From Lysinibacillus contaminans (GTDB lineage Bacteria; Bacillota; Bacilli; Bacillales_A; Planococcaceae), in assembly GCF_001278945.1 (NCBI RefSeq), contig NZ_LGRV01000005.1:1-64000 (forward strand): a stretch of 64,000 nucleotides of DNA, read 5' to 3'. Shown piece after piece: positions 31,267-58,155 of the stretch. The notes beneath the pieces are model-generated. The model had not been told where the DNA came from. It made no database searches and was given only the letters and a program-made list of their open reading frames with translations. The position numbers and the translations under genes are program-made. Within the stretch, counting starts at the first letter, position 1; the number at the start of each line of letters is the position of its first letter.

Positions 31267-34200
31267 CTAGTTATTACCAACCATATAAGTTAATTGTATA
31301 AGTGTATCTTCGTTTAACTTATAAGCAATGACTAACATATACCAACCTTTATCTTCTGCTGAAAGATCAATTGTAAACTGATCTGCATTTGGTGCAAGCT
31401 GCTCAACATCTACAGCTATTTCTTTATTGGTTTTCGTATGTCTAAGACCAATTTGGGAAGGATTTAGATATTGACCATCTAAGCCTTTTACTAGGTTTTC
31501 CACTGTCATTACTGGTCCTGTTAAGCTTGTCACTTCAACGATTTGTGGATGTGCAATCACATTCTCTAATTTAGTTAGATCTTTTAGTGGTGAGAAATCT
31601 GTTACTTCATTTCCTGCGATATTTAGTGTAACTAAATTCTTCGCGTATTGTAAGCCTTCAAGACTCGTTACTCTTTCAGTTCGAGTAGCAGGACAATCAA
31701 GAATAGTGAGCTTATACATATCACCTAGTGTTATTTCTCCTGTAAGCCCTAGTGTTTGCTGGATATACATTTTAAGGTTTCTATCTGTTATTGTGATGAT
31801 TTGATTGAAGTCTATTGCCACTAACGCAGCTTTTGCTTGAATTAGCATTTCTAAAGCTTGATCGATTTCTACTTGAGTGGTTTGCTTATTCGCAAGAAGT
31901 TCTTCTGCTTTTGCGATGCTAGCTTGGAATGCATTCATACTTTCAGATGTATAGCCCTCAGAATCGATGGCTTTCGCATCTTCAATAGCAGCTGCTAAAT
32001 CTTGTGTGAAAATTCTATCCGCGTTAGCGAAATGTAATTTAGCATCTCCCCATGTTGCATGGTCAGAACCGTCCCCGTTACCTCCGTCTGTAACGACTAA
32101 CTTAAGCTCTTTGGCACCGCTAATATTCACTTCAATGAATTTTTGAGGATCTTTAGATTGCATTAAGCCACTGTCGAATTGTTTTTCTCCATCAACAAAT
32201 ACTTGGAATGTAACAGAGCCGATCGAACCATACATTTGACGATCTACACCCACAAATGAAGTGAAATAATCAGCATCTTTATCTGTTAAATCATAGACGA
32301 TTGTTGAATTGGAATGTGCGCCAATTCCTTTTGTATAAGAAGTTTCACTGCCGTCAGCTGCCGTTAATCTTAAAGCATTTCCACTTGTAGCTACATCTTT
32401 TTTAGGAGCGGTATAGCTGTTTTGAGTAGATTTCCATTCGAAATCTGAAAGGTAATGAGTATCGTCCATATTCACTACAGAGATTGTTCTTTTCTTTGTG
32501 ATTTCATTGCCATCACTATCAGTAACAGTATACGTAAGCTCATAAGTACCAGCTCGATCGAAGTTTACTTGATCTATTCCTGTCACTTGTACAGCAGCTG
32601 TTAAATCGCCATCTTCTGCATCTATTGCTGAGTATTGTTCGTTGATGTCAATAGGAGTTCCGACTTTAGTTGCAATCGATTTAGGGATTGTAAGCTCCGG
32701 AAGTCCATTTGAAATATAAAACTTGGCATCAGCAAAGTTAGCGTGGTCAGATGAATTGTTGTTACTAGAATCATTTGCGATCAGCGTTAATTCTTTTACA
32801 TCATTCAGTGGAATCCTAACTAGTTTTGCTTCGGTGTTATATTTCATAACCCCGCTATTATAGACTTCTTGTCCATCTGCTAGTACTTTAAAAGTAACAC
32901 TTGAGTTATTATTTTCAGGGATATTTCGATCTACTCCAACTAATGTTTCAAAGTAATCGTAGTTCTTATCTGCAAGATCGTACACAATTGTAGAGTTTGC
33001 ATGCGTACCAATCCCTTTGGAAAATTCTTTCGTCTCTCCATTAACGAGTACCTTAATAGAGCCTCCTGAAGAAGACGTATCTTTCTTAACCGTGCTGTAA
33101 GCAGTTTGTGCAGACGTCCAATTTGTATCACTTGTGAATGTAGTATCACTGTACACATAAATATTTCTAGATGCTGTCGCAACATTGTTATCACTATCTA
33201 TTGCAGAATACTGAATCGTATAAGTACCTGTTTTCTTTGTAGTAAAGTCAGGAGCTGTTACTTGGATTTGTTGCTTTAAATCTCCATCTTCAATATCAGA
33301 TGCTACAACATCTTTTAACAGATCAAAATCACTGTTTAACTTCACCATCGTTAAATCTTCAGAAACAGTTAATGTTGGAATACTAGAGTCTTTTGTTAAC
33401 TTCGCATCCGCCCATACTGTATGGTCAAATGAATTCCCATTATCATTTGCATCTGTTGTTACTAGTTTAATTTCTTTTGCTCCTTTAACCGGAACTTTTA
33501 CAAATTCATGTTCAGTATTGGATTTAAATACTTTACTAGTTAATTTCTTATCACCATCTACCCACACTTCAAAAGTGGCAGATGCGTCTTTTCCTTTTAC
33601 ATTTTGGTCTATGCCAATATAGCTTTCAAAGAAATCGAAGTCTTTTCCTTCAATGTCATACACAACCTCTGAATTAGCATGTGTACCAAGACCTTTTGCG
33701 TAAGTAACATCTAGCCCTTGTCTCACTAGTGTAATAGGCGTGCCAGGAGTTGCTGTGTCTTTCTTCAAGCCGCCATATTGAATGTTCGCCGATTTTGCAT
33801 TCATATCTGAAACATATGCATAATCACTTGTTACGGACACTTTTGCTATTTTCGTTTCAGTAAGATTCGCATTTTTTACTTCGAAAACAATTTCGTAGTT
33901 TCCTTTTTTTGTTGTATCGACAGTGTTCGATTTTATTACTACATTTTCAGTAATATCCAGACCCGAATATGAAGATGCTTTTACATAATCCATTGGGTCA
34001 TACTGTTGGTGTAATTTTAGCGTTACTTGCTCCTCTACAGATAGGGTTGGCTGCTGTGATTTCACTTCTGCAGGTTTTAAACTGTTTAATTTTTTATCAT
34101 AAGCAACTACTTCATACGTATGAGGAATAGTTGTATCGACATTTTTGTCGACAAATGACAGACTCGTCGTATAGCCAATTACTTTTCCATCTCGAAGTAT

Positions 34201-37095
34201 TTCATAACCCATAGAAGCATCTTTATTAGCTGCATCTATATCATAGGATAGGGAAATCTCCTTTTTTTCTATATTTGTTATTATAGATTGTACTGTAATT
34301 TTCGCATCGTTTGAGAACCCAGACCCTTCATAACTACGTCCTAAACTATGCATGTATTCTAATTTCACAGTTGGTTTAGGTAAATGGGCTACTTTTTCCT
34401 TCATTTTATCGGTAGCTGTTACATAGCCCCAATCTTCGAAGAATTGTGTTAAATCTGTTTCAGATGCTAAAGATAAACCGACAACTAATCTTTGTAAGTT
34501 GCTGCCTAAGCCATTCATAACACCATCAGGGTTTGTTCGGGCAATTCGAGAAGCCTTACCATAAGTATCTTCACCGTAATAATATTGTACTTGCTCAAGT
34601 ATGCCTAGGTAAGTCCAGAAGCCATGGCTTACTTTTTCTCCTGAAAATCGTTTGTATAATGTGTTCCAATCAACTCGATCGTTATTATCGTTTTCGAATT
34701 TTTTTCTCAAAATTACAGAGTATAGATTATTCGTTATTTCAGTGTGCTCCATAGTGGAGTTATTAATGTTATGGCCCCATTCATGAAAATAAGCCCAACC
34801 ATCGTTACCAGGAACACCAAATGGTTTTACGATTTGTTTGAAGAAACCATCATCTCTTCTCGGTGTATTACCTCCGTTATAACCAGTGTATCCCCAGTCA
34901 GACCAGCCATAAGGTCCTTTTGTAAACACCCTAGAAGTGAACTTCGCATTAAAGCGGGCATCATTTTCTGTATAACCGCTAATTTTTTGGAACTCTTTCC
35001 ATAAGCTTTCCCAGTCATTCATCGTGTCTGCTACAGTTTTCCCTGTAGATTTTAATTCTTGTATGCCCTTTAAAGCACCAGCCGCACTTGTAGAGATTGT
35101 ATTATTTTCAGAAACAAGCTCTGCGATATTATAAACAACATCTTTAGGAATACCATTTGAAAAGTCATTATCATTTGTACTAATTTTCGCTACATATGCT
35201 TCTAATTCTTTTTCAAACGCTGCAGGCTCCGTTTTTCCATGATAGTAAACAGGGAAGGCTGTACCTCCAACTAATCTTACTTTAGGCGCATAGGCTTGCT
35301 GGCTTGGTAACGCTGGGTTTTCTACATATATTGCTGCAGGTTTCATATTGTCATATGAAGGAGCCTTTATCGTATTTAAACCTGGTTGTAATGAATATCT
35401 TCTAATCCAGCCGTTTTTATCATCAGCAATTTGTCCTAAAACTAAGTTAGGCATTACGCCGTTTTCATCTGCATCAACAAAAACCTGAACCGTCTCGCCT
35501 GGTACTACATATCGACCAAAAGTTTCTAAAGAGAAAGATGTTCGTGCTATCTGATGTTTACTTGCTTCTGTATTCGAATTTCCTCGCTGAGATGCTGTTA
35601 CGATTGCTTCATTAGCAACATTGACGTTATTTAATATATCCTTTGCAAGCTTGATGTTTACTTGCAATTGTTCTTTTAATGGATGTTTAGCAACTTCTGT
35701 TTCTAATTTATTGATCGTGCTTATTGAAGCAAATTCAGGCTTTAATTCATTCATTAAACCATTCGTAAATAGATTATTTACTTTGTCTTCTAAAGGATCT
35801 TCCGTATAAAATGCTAATTCTGATAAAGTGGCCCAATTTCGGTCAGATTTCTTAAATTTAAATTTAATTCGCTTAAAGGTAGTAGGCTCGAATTCAGCTT
35901 CCACCAATCCGGCTACCATTGCATGTTGTCCAGTAGATACAATTTGATAAGTATCGCCTTTTGATGTTTGAGAAGCATAGATTTCGAACTCTTGAGCAAA
36001 CCCTTTAAGGTCAGATTTTCTTGCCCCATACATAATTCGATTTAACGTTACAGCTTCATTAAATTCTACTTCTACTTCATTTGTAAAATCGTTGGTATTA
36101 CTTCTATTCGTTTCCCAATAAGTGTCTAAGTTACCGTCGATAGCATTTCCAATTACTGCACTAGCGTAGTGACCTCCGTTGTTACGAATACTCTTAATGT
36201 TTGTACTGTTTATTCTAAATAATTTAGAGTAGTCTTCGTTAGCGTAATGAGTAAATGGCTTTGTTGTAGCTGTTATTGCTTCTATTTTGTCTTGTGTTAA
36301 CAGTAATTTCGCATTTTCAATATCTTCTTTAAAGAGAGGATAGAGTGGATGATCTTTTGCTTCCTCTGTTAATGCATTTAAGGCAGTGATTGTATTAAAC
36401 GCATCGCTTACAGTGCTACATGTATCATCAGTAAATAATTTTTTCATTTTTTCAGATACAGGATCTTCTTTATAAAATAGAAACTCTGAAGCACTTGCCC
36501 AATCTTGGTTTGCTTTTTTATAGACAAATTTTAAACGCTTAAATTCTGTTGGGTTAAATTGAATTTCAACAATATCCCCTGTAGAACCTTTATATTCACC
36601 AGACGAAACGAGTGTAAAGTCATTCCCTTCATCAGAAGTTGAACTATAGATGTCAAACGCTTGGGCAAATCCTTTTCCTTTTACAGTGGATTGACGAGCT
36701 GCGTAAACAATTCTATCTATTGTGATGTTCTCATTGAAATGAAAGATGAGCTCATTTGTGAACGTAGCGGTATTTTGCTTACCTGTTTCCCAGTGGGTAT
36801 TCATATCTCCATCGATTGCCTTTTCAATAGGAGATCCAGGGTAGTTTCCGCCATTGTTCGTAATTGAGCGGATATTGGATTTCTCCATTTTAAATACTTC
36901 ATTATATGTATTCAATAAGTCATTTTCATACAAAGTAAACTTATTGACATTCGCAATATTTGCTAGTTTAATATTACTTCCAGCTGTAGTCGTTGTAACC
37001 CTTGTATCGTGATTTGTATCCGCTAAGACATTCATTGGACCACCGACTAGATTTAATGCCATGGCCGCTACTGTTGCGATCGTCACTACTTTCAT
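31267..37095 (-). CDS. Giant secreted M60-type (enhancin-like) zinc metallopeptidase
   Basis: 1942 residues. Order: signal peptide (about 1-26); two F5/8-type C (discoidin) carbohydrate-binding domains (about 70-215 and 290-430); an M60 peptidase domain with zinc motif HEWGH at 771-775 and the likely third ligand Glu786 in TEITNN; a fibronectin-like segment; three NPCBM-type domains near 1090, 1320 and 1550, separated by Ig/cadherin-like modules (EDGDL motifs); a FIVAR-like helical part near 1700-1770; a short leucine-rich repeat segment; and a beta-rich C-terminus. M60 enzymes cleave glycosylated proteins such as mucins. No LPxTG anchor is seen, so it is probably secreted or held by binding domains. 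A c-di-GMP-I riboswitch lies upstream. Confidence 0.9.
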   Translation of the reverse strand: MKVVTIATVAAMALNLVGGPMNVLADTNHDTRVTTTTAGSNIKLANIANVNKFTLYENDLLNTYNEVFKMEKSNIRSITNNGGNYPGSPIEKAIDGDMNTHWETGKQNTATFTNELIFHFNENITIDRIVYAARQSTVKGKGFAQAFDIYSSTSDEGNDFTLVSSGEYKGSTGDIVEIQFNPTEFKRLKFVYKKANQDWASASEFLFYKEDPVSEKMKKLFTDDTCSTVSDAFNTITALNALTEEAKDHPLYPLFKEDIENAKLLLTQDKIEAITATTKPFTHYANEDYSKLFRINSTNIKSIRNNGGHYASAVIGNAIDGNLDTYWETNRSNTNDFTNEVEVEFNEAVTLNRIMYGARKSDLKGFAQEFEIYASQTSKGDTYQIVSTGQHAMVAGLVEAEFEPTTFKRIKFKFKKSDRNWATLSELAFYTEDPLEDKVNNLFTNGLMNELKPEFASISTINKLETEVAKHPLKEQLQVNIKLAKDILNNVNVANEAIVTASQRGNSNTEASKHQIARTSFSLETFGRYVVPGETVQVFVDADENGVMPNLVLGQIADDKNGWIRRYSLQPGLNTIKAPSYDNMKPAAIYVENPALPSQQAYAPKVRLVGGTAFPVYYHGKTEPAAFEKELEAYVAKISTNDNDFSNGIPKDVVYNIAELVSENNTISTSAAGALKGIQELKSTGKTVADTMNDWESLWKEFQKISGYTENDARFNAKFTSRVFTKGPYGWSDWGYTGYNGGNTPRRDDGFFKQIVKPFGVPGNDGWAYFHEWGHNINNSTMEHTEITNNLYSVILRKKFENDNNDRVDWNTLYKRFSGEKVSHGFWTYLGILEQVQYYYGEDTYGKASRIARTNPDGVMNGLGSNLQRLVVGLSLASETDLTQFFEDWGYVTATDKMKEKVAHLPKPTVKLEYMHSLGRSYEGSGFSNDAKITVQSIITNIEKKEISLSYDIDAANKDASMGYEILRDGKVIGYTTSLSFVDKNVDTTIPHTYEVVAYDKKLNSLKPAEVKSQQPTLSVEEQVTLKLHQQYDPMDYVKASSYSGLDITENVVIKSNTVDTTKKGNYEIVFEVKNANLTETKIAKVSVTSDYAYVSDMNAKSANIQYGGLKKDTATPGTPITLVRQGLDVTYAKGLGTHANSEVVYDIEGKDFDFFESYIGIDQNVKGKDASATFEVWVDGDKKLTSKVFKSNTEHEFVKVPVKGAKEIKLVTTDANDNGNSFDHTVWADAKLTKDSSIPTLTVSEDLTMVKLNSDFDLLKDVVASDIEDGDLKQQIQVTAPDFTTKKTGTYTIQYSAIDSDNNVATASRNIYVYSDTTFTSDTNWTSAQTAYSTVKKDTSSSGGSIKVLVNGETKEFSKGIGTHANSTIVYDLADKNYDYFETLVGVDRNIPENNNSSVTFKVLADGQEVYNSGVMKYNTEAKLVRIPLNDVKELTLIANDSSNNNSSDHANFADAKFYISNGLPELTIPKSIATKVGTPIDINEQYSAIDAEDGDLTAAVQVTGIDQVNFDRAGTYELTYTVTDSDGNEITKKRTISVVNMDDTHYLSDFEWKSTQNSYTAPKKDVATSGNALRLTAADGSETSYTKGIGAHSNSTIVYDLTDKDADYFTSFVGVDRQMYGSIGSVTFQVFVDGEKQFDSGLMQSKDPQKFIEVNISGAKELKLVVTDGGNGDGSDHATWGDAKLHFANADRIFTQDLAAAIEDAKAIDSEGYTSESMNAFQASIAKAEELLANKQTTQVEIDQALEMLIQAKAALVAIDFNQIITITDRNLKMYIQQTLGLTGEITLGDMYKLTILDCPATRTERVTSLEGLQYAKNLVTLNIAGNEVTDFSPLKDLTKLENVIAHPQIVEVTSLTGPVMTVENLVKGLDGQYLNPSQIGLRHTKTNKEIAVDVEQLAPNADQFTIDLSAEDKGWYMLVIAYKLNEDTLIQLTYMVGNN

Positions 37096-37134
37096 ATATG
37101 TTTCCTCCTGATGAATATGTTCCTAAAAAGCACA

Positions 37135-37160
37135 CAAAAAAACCACTCAATAAGAGTAGC
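37135..37160 (-). terminator. Expression-platform terminator of the c-di-GMP riboswitch
   Basis: On the minus strand CTACTC pairs with GAGTGG (one G-U pair) followed by seven T. Upstream, AAAGTTTCAT and ATGAAAGCTTT can pair as an alternative stem (37175-37215). It lies about 40 bases before the peptidase start. Confidence 0.65.
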
Positions 37161-37237
37161 CCTCTATTCCTATAAAGCTTTCATAAAAAAGTTCTGGACT
37201 TTCATGAAACTTTATATCAACAAAAAGTAATATGTAC

Positions 37238-37320
37238 TCTTCGGCAACTGGCTGACTTAGTGATACACCTTAGTCCCTATAGCTTTGCGTCCCTAAATTT
37301 CTCTAGGTTTGCCTATTCGA
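37238..37320 (-). ncRNA. Cyclic di-GMP-I (GEMM) riboswitch
   Basis: On the minus strand the aptamer reads AGGCAAACCTAGAGAAATTT, then AGGGACGCAAAGCTATAGGG, ACTAAGG, and finally AAGTCAGCCAGTTGCCG. The GGCAAACC, GGGACGCAAAGC and closing GTTGCCG elements and the GAAA tetraloop match the GEMM-I fold with both helices formed. A terminator lies between it and the gene, so c-di-GMP probably controls transcription of the M60 peptidase. Whether it is an on or off switch needs folding. Confidence 0.92.
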
Positions 37321-37702
37321 TTTTATACTTCAAACAATAACATAATAAAATTTTGTCATAAAGAACAATTTGCCCTATATTTTACTAATTACGATAAAGG
37401 TATTATGGCTAAAATATCAATAAAACGGTAAATTAATCTACCTAATATAATAGGAAATATGGAGTGGGTATACAATAAATAGGTTTGTATAAACAATTTG
37501 AATTATGGGATAGATGTTAGAATTGAAGTTAAGGAAGCGTAAAAGAGTAGGTAAACATTATTTTCCCCAACGTATTGAAAACACAAATACAGAAGAGGGA
37601 ATTGAAGTGAATTTACTAAGAAAAGAATGTACACACTAAAGTAATCAATAAGCTATCTGTAAAAGTAAGCAGTGAATTTGCAATAAAGAGGAGTAATGTC
37701 TA
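37321..37702. other. Divergent intergenic region
   Basis: AT-rich. It holds the minus-strand promoter for the riboswitch-peptidase transcript and the plus-strand promoter for the methyltransferase. I see no intact ORF over 15 codons with a ribosome site and no repeats. Confidence 0.4.
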
Positions 37703-38434
37703 ATGAAACAAAACAAATATGATGATGAAAATTTCTTTTCTGCCTATGAAAAAATGCCACGGTCCATTAAAGGACTAGAAGGTGCTGGGGAATGGCATGT
37801 ATTAAAGGCATTACTACCAGAGCTGCGAGATAAGAGTATACTTGATTTGGGTTGTGGCTTTGGTTGGCATTGTCGATATGCTAGTGACCAACAGGCAGCT
37901 TCTATAATAGGCATTGATATATCGGAAAAGATGCTTCAAAAAGCTCGTGAAATGACAGAGGATCCTTCAATTACGTATATAAAAAAGGCAATTGAAGACA
38001 TCAATTTTTCAGAGGCACAATTTGATGTGGCGATAAGTTCATTGGCTTTTCACTATATTAAGTCGTTTGAAGTAATCTGCAAGAAAGTCTATGAATGTCT
38101 AAAGCCTGGGGGTTCTTTTGTTTTTTCAGTTGAACATCCCATCTTTACATCGCGTGGAGAACAAGATTGGTACTACGATAGCCAGGGGAATCGTCTGCAC
38201 TGGCCGGTAGACAATTATCAATCGGAAGGTATACGAGAAACTACATTTTTAACTGAAAACGTCATCAAATATCATCGCACGTTTTCAACATATTTAAATG
38301 ACTTATTGGCTGCTGGTTTTACGATAAAAGCAGTCAAGGAACCTGAGCCGTCTGAAGCAATGTTGCAGAGTATACCGGAGATGAAGGATGAACTTAGGAG
38401 ACCTATGTTTTTAATAATCTCAGCGGAAAAGTAA
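37703..38434 (+). CDS. Class I SAM-dependent methyltransferase
   Basis: 243-residue Methyltransf_11-type enzyme: motif I LDLGCGFGWHCRYA, GIDISEKMLQKAR after strand 2, and motif IV FDVAISSLAFHYI. Similar to small-molecule methyltransferases of the UbiE/YdaC kind; the substrate is unknown. GAGGAG precedes the ATG. Monocistronic; a stem-loop follows at 38463. Confidence 0.85.
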   Translation: MKQNKYDDENFFSAYEKMPRSIKGLEGAGEWHVLKALLPELRDKSILDLGCGFGWHCRYASDQQAASIIGIDISEKMLQKAREMTEDPSITYIKKAIEDINFSEAQFDVAISSLAFHYIKSFEVICKKVYECLKPGGSFVFSVEHPIFTSRGEQDWYYDSQGNRLHWPVDNYQSEGIRETTFLTENVIKYHRTFSTYLNDLLAAGFTIKAVKEPEPSEAMLQSIPEMKDELRRPMFLIISAEK

Positions 38435-38695: not shown

Positions 38696-39535
38696 ATGCG
38701 AAAGTTTTTTAAGTTTATACTTCTATTGGTGGCAGTAGGAGTTATCGTTTTTGTCTATGGAACATTTATTGAATCAAAGTTATTAACTGTTAAGTCACAT
38801 GAGTTTTCATACGTATCACAGAACCAGGAAAAAGAGACATCCGTTAAAATTGCTCATTTTACAGATACGCAAATAGGGGAATTTTTTAGTATGGATCAGT
38901 TCGAGAAGGTTGTTAAGAAAATAAACAAACAAAAGCCCGATATGATTGTCTTTACAGGCGATTTATTTGATATGGGTGCAACGGAAGCGGAGATCCAAGA
39001 GATTATCTCTCTTTTAAAAGAGATGGAAGCGCCATACGGGAAATTTTCGGTTTATGGTAATCGGGATGTCGGAGGCGGCATGGTCCGAAATTACGAACGT
39101 TTACTTACGGATGCTGATTTTACGCTTTTACAAAATGAAGAAACGACGATTACTTTTCCAAATGGGGAAGAACTACTCATATATGGATTAGATGACGCAC
39201 TGTTAGGTTCACCTGATATAGCTGGTGTAAATGAAATGCTAGCTCGTAATCAAAATACACTTGTATTATTACATGAACCAGATGTAGCAAAACAGCTTGA
39301 GTTTACGAATCATGCCTTAGTTTTGGCTGGTCATAGTCATGGTGGACAAGTGTACCTACCATTTATCGGACCACTCGCTACTACTGCATTAGCTGAGGAA
39401 TACGTTAAGGGCTGGTATACCCTTTCTGGGAACGTTAACCCAAATTTATATGTGAATACTGGATTGGGAAATACGAAACTGCCATTTCGTTTTGGAAACA
39501 TTCCACAAGTCGCACTTATAAACATACACTTATAA
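38696..39535 (+). CDS. Membrane-anchored metallophosphoesterase (YkuE/YaeI-like)
   Basis: 279 residues with one N-terminal membrane helix (about residues 5-25) and a calcineurin-like phosphoesterase domain facing outward. Metal motifs: HFTDTQIG (usual form SDxHxG, here Gln for His), VFTGDLFD, YGNRD (usual GNHD), a histidine in LHEPD and GHSHGGQV. The YkuE group hydrolyses phosphoesters, including UDP-sugar lipids such as UDP-2,3-diacylglucosamine in Gram-negatives; the role here is unknown. GAGGGGAAAAG precedes the ATG. Substitution at two histidine positions may change the metal site. Confidence 0.85.
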   Translation: MRKFFKFILLLVAVGVIVFVYGTFIESKLLTVKSHEFSYVSQNQEKETSVKIAHFTDTQIGEFFSMDQFEKVVKKINKQKPDMIVFTGDLFDMGATEAEIQEIISLLKEMEAPYGKFSVYGNRDVGGGMVRNYERLLTDADFTLLQNEETTITFPNGEELLIYGLDDALLGSPDIAGVNEMLARNQNTLVLLHEPDVAKQLEFTNHALVLAGHSHGGQVYLPFIGPLATTALAEEYVKGWYTLSGNVNPNLYVNTGLGNTKLPFRFGNIPQVALINIHL

Positions 39536-57853: not shown

Positions 57854-57910
57854 TATTTTCGTTTTTTCAAAAGTGATGTTAAACTAATTGTAATTATGAA
57901 TGAAGGGAAG

Positions 57911-57933
57911 ATGGGTGGCCCATGAACAACTAA
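57911..57933 (+). promoter_or_regulatory. Two overlapping very short upstream ORFs in the ABC-F leader
   Basis: ATG GGT GGC CCA TGA at 57911-57925 and ATG AAC AAC TAA at 57922-57933 share the ATGA overlap. AAGGGAAG precedes the first. Leader peptides of three to five codons are typical of antibiotic-responsive attenuators of ABC-F genes such as vmlR and Listeria lmo0919. Confidence 0.5.
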
Positions 57934-58130
57934 TCTTATTTTTACGTTTGAAATTTAAAATTTCAATGAATAAAAAATAGGATTAGTCTGCCCATTTTCT
58001 ATAAAACAACGAGCTATTACACAACAATTGCGCCTTGGCGTAATTGTTGCTGGATGACAAAATAGTCTTTTTGTGTAACGTTATTTTTGCAGCTAATCCT
58101 TCCAAAAACATTGGAGGGATTTTTTTATGC
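57929..58130 (+). promoter_or_regulatory. Attenuator leader of the ABC-F gene
   Basis: Three stems in order: a long one pairing ACTAATCTTATTTTTA with TAAAAAATAGGATTAGT (57928-57987, with ATGGG/CCCAT flanks), a perfect-like CAACAATTGCGCC/GGCGTAATTGTTG hairpin (58022-58049) and a terminator, ATCCTTCCA/TGGAGGGAT followed by seven T (58097-58127). It ends 30 bases before the ABC-F start, so default transcription should stop there. Confidence 0.75.
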
Positions 58131-58155
58131 CTCCGAATAGAGAGGAATGGATTGT

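What the first reader, a model, noticed from the sequence alone, without database searches (positions are those of the whole stretch)
37135..37320. c-di-GMP-I riboswitch in front of a giant secreted M60 metallopeptidase
Seen: a full GEMM-I aptamer and a downstream terminator on the minus strand, ending just before the 1942-residue gene. Known: in Clostridioides difficile, c-di-GMP-I riboswitches control a secreted metalloprotease that releases surface adhesins, and in Bacillus thuringiensis one controls a collagen-binding adhesin. Inference: this genus may couple the motile/sessile decision to digestion of a glycoprotein matrix, with the two F5/8C and three NPCBM-like domains acting as targeting modules. 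I do not know of this pairing being described.
Basis: partly seen in the sequence, partly recalled or inferred. Interest (0 to 1): 0.75.

Follow-up and report, generated by a model that had tools for sequence, protein, structure and literature searches.

The report
c-di-GMP switch controlling a mucin-type peptidase
A known kind of RNA switch that senses the bacterial signal c-di-GMP sits directly in front of a gene for a giant secreted enzyme related to mucin-cutting peptidases; relatives in several bacterial families carry the same pair, which may link the swim-or-settle decision to digestion of glycoproteins.

Summary
A complete c-di-GMP-I aptamer (RF01051, 78.8 bits, cut-off 35) lies at 37323-37240 (-), followed by a terminator (37165-37136), a Shine-Dalgarno site and the ATG (37095) of a 1942-aa gene. 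The protein resembles the ZmpA/B/C O-glycopeptidases in the PDB, with the zinc motif HEWGH...E intact. The pair is not peculiar to this genome: the aptamer lies upstream on the same strand in 28 of 29 homologue loci, and in 16/22, 15/18 and 20/54 M60 genes of three family censuses, against 0/8 short M60 genes of the window's family. Most leaders share one expression platform: a hairpin closed by the ligand-pairing nucleotide 92, and a terminator whose 5' arm that hairpin's strand can capture. Polarity is not proven; my two calculations disagree. I favour OFF (0.65), mainly because the aptamer-hairpin unit also precedes four flgB-like genes in Clostridium, and C. difficile flgB is a published OFF switch. 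I found no description of the pairing in the library searched.

The parts
37334..37342 (-). Extended -10 promoter element TGTTATTGT (TGnTANNNT); transcription start inferred 6-7 nt further on, about 15 nt before the aptamer GGCA
   Evidence: Sequence. The motif lies 25-45 nt before the aptamer GGCA in 36 of 51 leaders, 2.5 expected from base shuffles.
37240..37323 (-). c-di-GMP-I riboswitch aptamer (RF01051)
   Evidence: 78.8 bits, gathering score 35
37280..37286 (-). Aptamer segment AAAGCTA (x), complementary (here with two wobbles) to the terminator 3' arm; possible direct coupling of ligand binding to termination
   Evidence: Consensus x pairs >=7 with the 3' arm in 40 of 45 M60 leaders with terminators below -8 kcal/mol, 6 of 41 background terminators; leaders are related by descent
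37221..37243 (-). Post-aptamer hairpin CGAAGAGTA...TACTTTTTG (A:B), closed by the nucleotide equivalent to C92 of Vc2
   Evidence: The best hairpin starts at nucleotide 92 in 49 of 51 leaders; changes on both sides at 5 of 9 pairs over 16 distinct arm pairs (arms were chosen by best pairing, which inflates the count)
37152..37158 (-). TACTCTT in the terminator 5' arm (C), complementary to AAGAGTA of the post-aptamer hairpin: antiterminator A:C
   Evidence: A:C >=6 pairs in 44 of 50 leaders, 12.6% with shuffled A, same procedure
37136..37165 (-). Intrinsic terminator with T7 tract (C:D)
37104..37109 (-). Shine-Dalgarno AGGAGG
   Evidence: sequence
31267..37095 (-). Giant M60 metallopeptidase, 1942 aa: signal peptide (inferred by eye), 2 F5/8C, M60, Ig-like repeats, 3 NPCBM, FIVAR-like, LRR-like
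34063..35625 (-). M60 catalytic module (residues 491-1011), 'type A' cassette
   Evidence: 5kdn E 3.6e-46; swapped relative to its flanks
34771..34785 (-). Zinc site HEWGH (residues 771-775), with Glu786 of EITNN 11 residues after it

Best explanation
The element is a c-di-GMP-I riboswitch that controls, by transcription termination, a secreted ZmpB-like M60 O-glycopeptidase. Shown: the aptamer, the terminator, the gene and their conserved linkage; a conserved set of mutually exclusive helices (A:B closed by nucleotide 92 together with terminator C:D, against A:C, possibly with aptamer segment x pairing D). Inferred: without c-di-GMP, A (and x) capture the two arms of the terminator and the gene is read; with c-di-GMP, the folded aptamer keeps x, A stays in its hairpin, the terminator forms and the gene is off. 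The enzyme would then be made in the low-c-di-GMP, motile state, as flgB would be behind the same unit, and cut O-glycosylated proteins that its F5/8C and NPCBM modules bind. My probabilities: riboswitch controls this gene 0.9; OFF polarity 0.65; substrate an O-glycoprotein 0.75.
For: Aptamer 78.8 bits. Aptamer upstream in 28 of 29 homologue loci. Censuses: 16 of 22 long M60 genes in the window's family; 15 of 18 low-scoring M60 places in the Paenibacillus family; 20 of 54 in the Clostridium family; 0 of 8 and 0 of 47 short or high-scoring M60 places (the RF01051 list was cut by the tool). Platform. OFF: with all pairings open to the free RNA and the aptamer isolated in the bound RNA, the terminator gains in 37 of 50 leaders and loses in 7; x:D in 40 of 45 against 6 of 41 background terminators; the aptamer-hairpin unit precedes 4 flgB-like genes, A:C complementarity in 3, and class I riboswitches of C. 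difficile, flgB's included, are described as OFF switches (PMC11477304 and PMC6366702, passages). Enzyme: PDB matches; HEWGH and EITNN aligned with 5kdn. The genome has 18 GGDEF places.
Against: No expression or binding data. If the aptamer is kept folded in both states and only nucleotide 92 is made unavailable, the terminator loses in 37 of 50 leaders and gains in 2, which argues for ON; neither calculation has a shuffled-sequence control. B. thuringiensis Bc2 is a proven ON switch of this class (PMC4933901, abstract and passages), and one C. difficile class I target rises with c-di-GMP (PMC6200980, passages). x:D in the window needs two wobble pairs, fails in leaders with AAAACTA before a GGC or AGC arm (L119, L053; sequences), and reached 7 pairs in 6 of 15 non-M60 leaders scored. 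One of the four flgB-like leaders (L195) shows no A:C. Six of 22 long M60 genes of the window's family have no aptamer; five of their six genomes have none at all. Bc1 shows that such a riboswitch can bind c-di-GMP and yet not change its gene's expression (PMC11218506, abstract).
Confidence: 0.62

Rival explanations
1. ON switch: without ligand the hairpin A:B is closed by the C92-G pair, so the terminator forms. c-di-GMP takes C92, loosens the hairpin, and A pairs the terminator 5' arm: read-through. The enzyme would be made in the sessile state, as Cap is at high c-di-GMP in B. thuringiensis.
For: Nucleotide 92 closes the hairpin in 49 of 51 leaders, with a C-G to U-A change in L156. Making only nucleotide 92 unavailable lowers mean A:B from 0.52 to 0.19 and raises A:C from 0.44 to 0.73 before the 3' arm is made. 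Bc2 precedent.
Against: The same aptamer-hairpin unit precedes flgB-like genes, where switching on by c-di-GMP would be unexpected. forbids aptamer-terminator pairing by construction. One search points the other way. In the flgB leaders L206 and L208 the A:C helix itself includes nucleotide 92, which makes antiterminator and ligand exclusive there.
Confidence: 0.3
2. The riboswitch binds c-di-GMP but hardly changes gene expression in the cell, because the terminator is too strong or another regulator dominates, as reported for Bc1.
For: The terminator is favoured in both states in most leaders. Bc1 precedent (PMC11218506, abstract).
Against: Conservation of aptamer, hairpin and terminator complementarity across three bacterial families would not be expected of a switch without effect.
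Confidence: 0.07
3. Chance neighbourhood: the aptamer belongs to another gene or is a relic.
For: In G045 (L013) the aptamer stays in front of a gutted M60 gene.
Against: Genomes hold 0-11 aptamers, so linkage in 28 of 29 loci, 139-341 nt before the start of the matched gene in those I worked out, cannot be chance. The short M60 genes checked in the same families lack it. The upstream neighbour 37703-38434 lies on the other strand.
Confidence: 0.01

Closest known systems
c-di-GMP-I (GEMM-I) riboswitch, Rfam RF01051; C. difficile flgB (Cdi-1-3) and zmpI/PPEP-1 (Cdi-1-12) switches
   Same: Aptamer family; control by termination; a secreted metalloprotease as one target (PMC6200980, PMC6366702, passages)
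   Different: The target here is an M60 glycopeptidase-type protein. Polarity is measured there and only inferred here. I had no C. difficile leader to compare.
B. thuringiensis Bc2 riboswitch in front of cap (collagen adhesion protein)
   Same: c-di-GMP-I aptamer plus terminator before a surface protein
   Different: Bc2 is a proven ON switch (PMC4933901, abstract and passages); its target is an adhesin
ZmpA/ZmpB/ZmpC O-glycopeptidases (PDB 7jfs, 7js4, 5kdn, 5kdj, 6xsx, 6xsz)
   Same: F5/8C modules + M60 + further binding modules; 7jfs matches residues 37-1011 at 698 bits; zinc motif
   Different: The window's catalytic module gives only 126-161 bits to all six sequences matched, so it is a separate cassette. 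That these are C. perfringens enzymes, that the F5/8 entries are ZmpB, and that they cut mucin-type glycopeptides is recalled.
Short M60 (enhancin-like) proteins of the same families
   Same: PF13402
   Different: PF13402 scores of 162-251 bits (two fragments lower) against 46-81 for the ZmpB-like ones of the same two families; open frames mostly 480-1160 aa; no aptamer among those checked

Membership tests
c-di-GMP-I riboswitch (RF01051) | Covariance-model score above the gathering score, complete model | tested here: met
   78.8 bits, 35 needed, positions 1-87
c-di-GMP-I riboswitch (RF01051) | GAAA tetraloop, GGCA and GACGCAAA core, ligand-contact nucleotides G20, A47, C92 (Vc2 numbering) | tested here: met
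   Present in sequence and alignment. The role of G20/A47/C92 is quoted in PMC11218506 section 5; their placement on this sequence is mine.
c-di-GMP-I riboswitch (RF01051) | Binds c-di-GMP | not testable with these tools
   needs in-line probing or calorimetry
c-di-GMP-I riboswitch (RF01051) | Expression platform with a terminator and a mutually exclusive antiterminator | tested here: met
   Terminator; A:C complementarity of >=6 in 44 of 50 leaders, 7 pairs in the window. Switching itself not shown.
Transcriptional OFF switch | Ligand increases termination | tested here: inconclusive
   for, against; flgB analogy for
Peptidase M60 (PF13402) | Profile match above the curated cut-off | tested here: met
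   56.6 bits, 25.8 needed
Peptidase M60 (PF13402) | Gluzincin motif HExxH(8-28)E (motif recalled) | tested here: met
   HEWGH at residue 771, Glu at 786, aligned with 5kdn
ZmpB-type O-glycopeptidase | Homologous catalytic module plus F5/8C and further binding modules | tested here: met
ZmpB-type O-glycopeptidase | Cleaves next to O-glycosylated Ser/Thr | not testable with these tools
   needs the protein and glycopeptide substrates

The most novel reading that the evidence does not exclude
A c-di-GMP-controlled secreted chassis: leader, binding modules and tail are kept across Bacilli and Clostridia while the M60 catalytic cassette is exchanged. The same RNA design also stands before flgB-like genes and a pectate lyase-CBM77, so that motility and the digestion of animal and plant glycan matrices form one motile-phase regulon written in a single RNA design.
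Probability: 0.45. Interest if true: 0.7.

Novelty: new member of a known kind. Interest (0 to 1): 0.52.

Why it matters
It gives c-di-GMP riboswitches a recurrent target, giant glycopeptidase-type M60 enzymes, in non-model Bacilli and in Clostridium species. It makes one question directly testable in a laboratory host: do swimming cells or settled cells cut the glycoprotein coat? The expression platform is conserved enough to be a clean system for studying how a hairpin closed by the ligand-pairing nucleotide and a terminator share strands. The catalytic-cassette swap under constant regulation shows how substrate range could change without rewiring control.

Tried and rejected
(folding with hard pair constraints) is invalid: the constraint wiped out legal pairs; it was discarded and replaced by soft constraints. 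In some searches the strongest hairpin was taken as terminator; in L042 and L043 this is not the conserved one.

A basal helix P1 formed with a 5' strand like UAUUCUUU was considered and dropped: that stretch lies in or next to the extended -10 element, so it is probably not transcribed.

A pairing between the terminator 3' arm and a post-terminator element was dropped: 24 of 50 leaders, 19.0 expected. Post-terminator element against Shine-Dalgarno: 26 of 50, 7.6 expected; a possible translational layer, not followed.

Synteny as evidence of vertical descent: 8 window neighbour proteins against 11 loci gave one hit, in L013; 7 of the 11 loci carry only about 1.5 kb of flank.

x:D as a general rule for c-di-GMP-I switches: rejected, 6 of 15 scored; 12 of the 27 leaders put in gave no terminator within the code's limit.

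Rows dropped before counts: L015-L035 (partial hits without the full module) and one sub-cut-off M60 row of G659. Leaders: 55 were given to the pattern (L055 and L184, which also have an aptamer, were not); 4 without the exact GACGCAA pattern (L013, L123, L146, L164) are missing, and L177 where a terminator was required. G333:C2 with an aptamer 7.07 kb upstream counted as unlinked. Some M60 genes at contig ends could not be judged (e.g. G136:C11, G513:C48). In the trees L184, L148 and all loci without a module match over 40 bits were left out; several leaders are near-identical (L036-L039, L121). G237, G241, G260 and G268 repeat the genomes of L037, L038, L036 and L039 (same contig coordinates).

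Full report
WHAT IS THERE. The minus strand of 37342-37093 reads, in order: an extended -10 promoter TGTTATTGT (37342-37334), a complete c-di-GMP-I aptamer (37323-37240; RF01051, 78.8 bits, cut-off 35), a hairpin that starts on the last aptamer C (37243-37221), a long AU-rich stretch, an intrinsic terminator with seven T (37165-37136), AGGAGG (37109-37104) and the ATG of a 1942-codon gene (37095). The window's genome (4.1 Mb in 9 contigs, completeness 86%) has four such aptamers and one PF13402 gene, and 18 GGDEF places, so c-di-GMP is probably available as a signal. The window's family also holds the Sporosarcina genomes of L036-L039 (same contig coordinates), in another genus; the window's own genus is not named. 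My guess, Lysinibacillus, is an inference from genome size and family.

THE ENZYME. Against the PDB the protein matches chains 7jfs (residues 37-1011, 698 bits), 7js4, 7jnb, 5kdj, 7jrm, 5kdn, 6xsz 'ZmpC Glycopeptidase' and 6xsx 'ZmpA Glycopeptidase', among 41 sequences. That the F5/8 type C entries are C. perfringens ZmpB and that these enzymes cut O-glycosylated peptides is recalled. The catalytic module aligns over its length with 5kdn, including GW..HE.GHN and E.TNN (E 3.6e-46); HEWGH is residues 771-775 and the third ligand Glu786. A signal peptide is inferred from the N-terminus; I see no LPxTG at the end, so the protein is probably released.

THE PAIR IS CONSERVED. A search with the protein alone gave 29 loci with an M60 module or, in L013 and L055, pieces of the gene (9 unnamed; 20 named Sporosarcina, Paenibacillus and Clostridium loci). 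The aptamer lies upstream on the same strand in 28 of 29; the miss is L014, at 34% identity, whose genome has no aptamer. One of the 28, L013, is a gutted gene that kept its aptamer. A census by family, not tied to this query, gave the following. Window's family, 261 genomes, 30 M60 genes: 16 of 22 long genes have the aptamer within 5 kb upstream, 0 of 8 short ones. Paenibacillus family, 344 genomes drawn from a larger group: 13 of 18 low-scoring (ZmpB-like) places by the list plus two found by direct scanning (G761, G833), so 15 of 18; 0 of 47 high-scoring places, with the caution that the aptamer list was cut by the tool. Clostridium family, 206 genomes: 20 of 54. Of the 34 misses there 33 were fetched, and 26 of these give no phmmer match to the window's module, so they are other M60 sub-families; some of the rest lie at contig ends. 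Of the six long genes of the window's family without an aptamer, five form one clade (0.999) and the sixth, L114, branches beside it, within a clade shared with the Paenibacillus genes; five of their six genomes have no aptamer at all, which looks like loss. Five genomes (G125, G130, G134, G232, G341) hold two aptamer-linked M60 genes; in G125, G134 and G232 one of the two has the window's type of module.

THE CATALYTIC CASSETTE IS SWAPPED. Against L007 (same genus), in steps of 100 residues, the window protein is 55-81% identical over residues 1-500 and 64-85% over 1000-1942, but 25-41% over 500-1000 (over the three same-genus relatives 23-41% inside 55-85%; all relatives). A 'type A' module joins the window, four Sporosarcina loci, L121, G232 copy b (L119) and two Clostridium genes (L161, L040); the other eight are 66-89% identical to the window's over 500-1000 except one step of 51% in L040. 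In the module tree (68 rows) type A is one clade with support 1.0. In the tree of the first F5/8 domain (65 rows) its members scatter: the window beside L118/L123, which have another module (0.925), L161 beside Clostridium L052 (0.83), L036-L039 and L121 beside L007-L009 (0.85) (FastTree, one domain, modest supports). So leader and chassis stay while the peptidase changes.

THE EXPRESSION PLATFORM. 55 leaders were taken; 51 carry the exact aptamer pattern. An extended -10 sits 25-45 nt before GGCA in 36 of 51, 2.5 expected. Directly after the aptamer the best hairpin starts at nucleotide 92 (Vc2 numbering) in 49 of 51 leaders, not in L177 and L185. Over its 16 distinct arm pairs 139 of 144 cells are standard pairs; column shuffles average 131.8 and none of 500 reaches 139; five of nine positions show changes on both sides, including C92-G to U92-A in L156. 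The arms were picked by best pairing, which inflates these figures. The 5' strand A (AAAGAGUA) is also complementary to the terminator 5' arm C (UACUCUUU): 6 or more pairs in 44 of 50 leaders, 12.6% with shuffled A. The aptamer segment AAAGCUA (x) is complementary to the terminator 3' arm: 43 of 50 with each leader's own x (no control), and with one consensus x 40 of 45 leaders with terminators below -8 kcal/mol, against 6 of 41 other terminators. The leaders are related, so these counts are not independent events.

POLARITY. Two calculations disagree and I report both; neither has a shuffled control. If the free RNA may use every pairing and the bound RNA has its aptamer isolated with nucleotides 20 and 92 occupied, binding favours the terminator in 37 of 50 leaders and disfavours it in 7 (mean -1.5 kcal/mol): OFF. 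If the aptamer is kept folded in both states and only nucleotide 92 is taken away, binding disfavours the terminator in 37 of 50 and favours it in 2 (mean +0.8): ON. The second excludes x:D by construction. A calibration comes from other genes. A pattern for aptamer end plus hairpin (not terminator) occurs at 23 places in 18 of 206 Clostridium-family genomes: 12 M60-type genes, one pectate lyase, four flgB-like genes (L195, L206, L207, L208) and six others by my reading of the first ORF. Pfam gives Flg_bb_rod for the L195 and L208 proteins and nothing for L207; L206 was judged by eye. A:C complementarity to a terminator was found in L206, L207 and L208, not in L195; in L206 and L208 it includes nucleotide 92, so there ligand and antiterminator exclude each other. 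In C. difficile class I switches are described as OFF switches, flgB's being one (PMC11477304, passages; PMC6366702, passages), although one C. difficile class I target rises with c-di-GMP (PMC6200980, passages) and Bc2 of B. thuringiensis is ON (PMC4933901). I therefore lean to OFF, 0.65.

OTHER TARGETS. In the window's genome the aptamer at C1:293767 has the same platform (A:B 9 pairs, A:C 8) before a 716-aa protein with Pectate_lyase_4 and CBM77, and a C. neonatale locus (L062/L213) has the same platform before a visibly related protein. The aptamer at C1:189193 precedes a carbon-nitrogen hydrolase with a differently built leader. Of 31 non-M60 aptamer loci put through the same code, the hairpin of 8 or more pairs from nucleotide 92 with A:C of 7 or more appears in three (L001, L062, L075); five could not be scored.

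WHAT IS NEW. Riboswitch class, enzyme family and the principle (c-di-GMP riboswitch before a secreted metalloprotease) are known. I found no paper that links c-di-GMP riboswitches to M60. The searches, in an open-licence library only: riboswitch with 'peptidase M60', 0 papers; 48 papers, 20 listed; the one M60 hit I opened, in PMC6200980, is a reference number; 31 papers, 20 listed; 'enhancin' also matches 'enhancing'; 42, 51 and 158 papers, 15, 12 and 12 listed. Beyond these listings I opened abstracts, passages and one section only. The M60-like domain paper has no occurrence of riboswitch or c-di-GMP in its main text (PMC3267712), and the 2019 review names a collagen-binding-domain gene for C. 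tetani and C. perfringens but has no hit for M60 or mucin. Hence 'new member of a known kind', with conservation, cassette exchange and the shared platform as the parts worth following.

Noticed in passing
window 34063-35625 (-) and loci L007, L036-L040, L119, L121, L161: The M60 catalytic module is an exchanged cassette: 23-41% identical to three same-genus relatives inside flanks of 55-85%, yet 66-89% identical over most of the module to Sporosarcina and Clostridium modules.
   Followed up: yes
L192:517-2667 (own genome C1, about 294016) and L062/L213: A pectate lyase with CBM77 stands behind a c-di-GMP-I riboswitch with the same hairpin and terminator design as the M60 gene; a visibly related protein with the same leader occurs in Clostridium neonatale.
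   Followed up: partly
L195, L206, L207, L208: flgB-like genes in Clostridium genomes carry the same aptamer-hairpin unit; L195 has two aptamers in tandem.
   Followed up: partly
L156 (G341:C2, about 95543): c-di-GMP-I aptamer with U in place of the ligand-pairing C92, before a distant M60 gene; ligand specificity may differ.
   Followed up: no
L013 (G045:C1, about 1523000-1524900): Gutted M60 gene (N-terminal piece and last 484 residues, with stops) that keeps its riboswitch; a neighbour is 90.7% identical to the window's 38696-39535 protein.
   Followed up: partly
L211 (G516:C15, about 42600): An M60-type leader, complete with platform, before a very short reading frame; perhaps a lost gene.
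   Followed up: no
window 57891-58126 (+): RF02452 ncr1575 (131.8 bits) with a terminator, directly before the 545-aa ORF at 58147; possibly a cis-regulatory leader rather than a free sRNA.
   Followed up: no
post-terminator element of M60 leaders, in the window about 37135-37118: A GUACUUCU-like stretch in many leaders, with 5 or more pairs to the Shine-Dalgarno site in 26 of 50 (7.6 expected), a possible translational second layer.
   Followed up: partly
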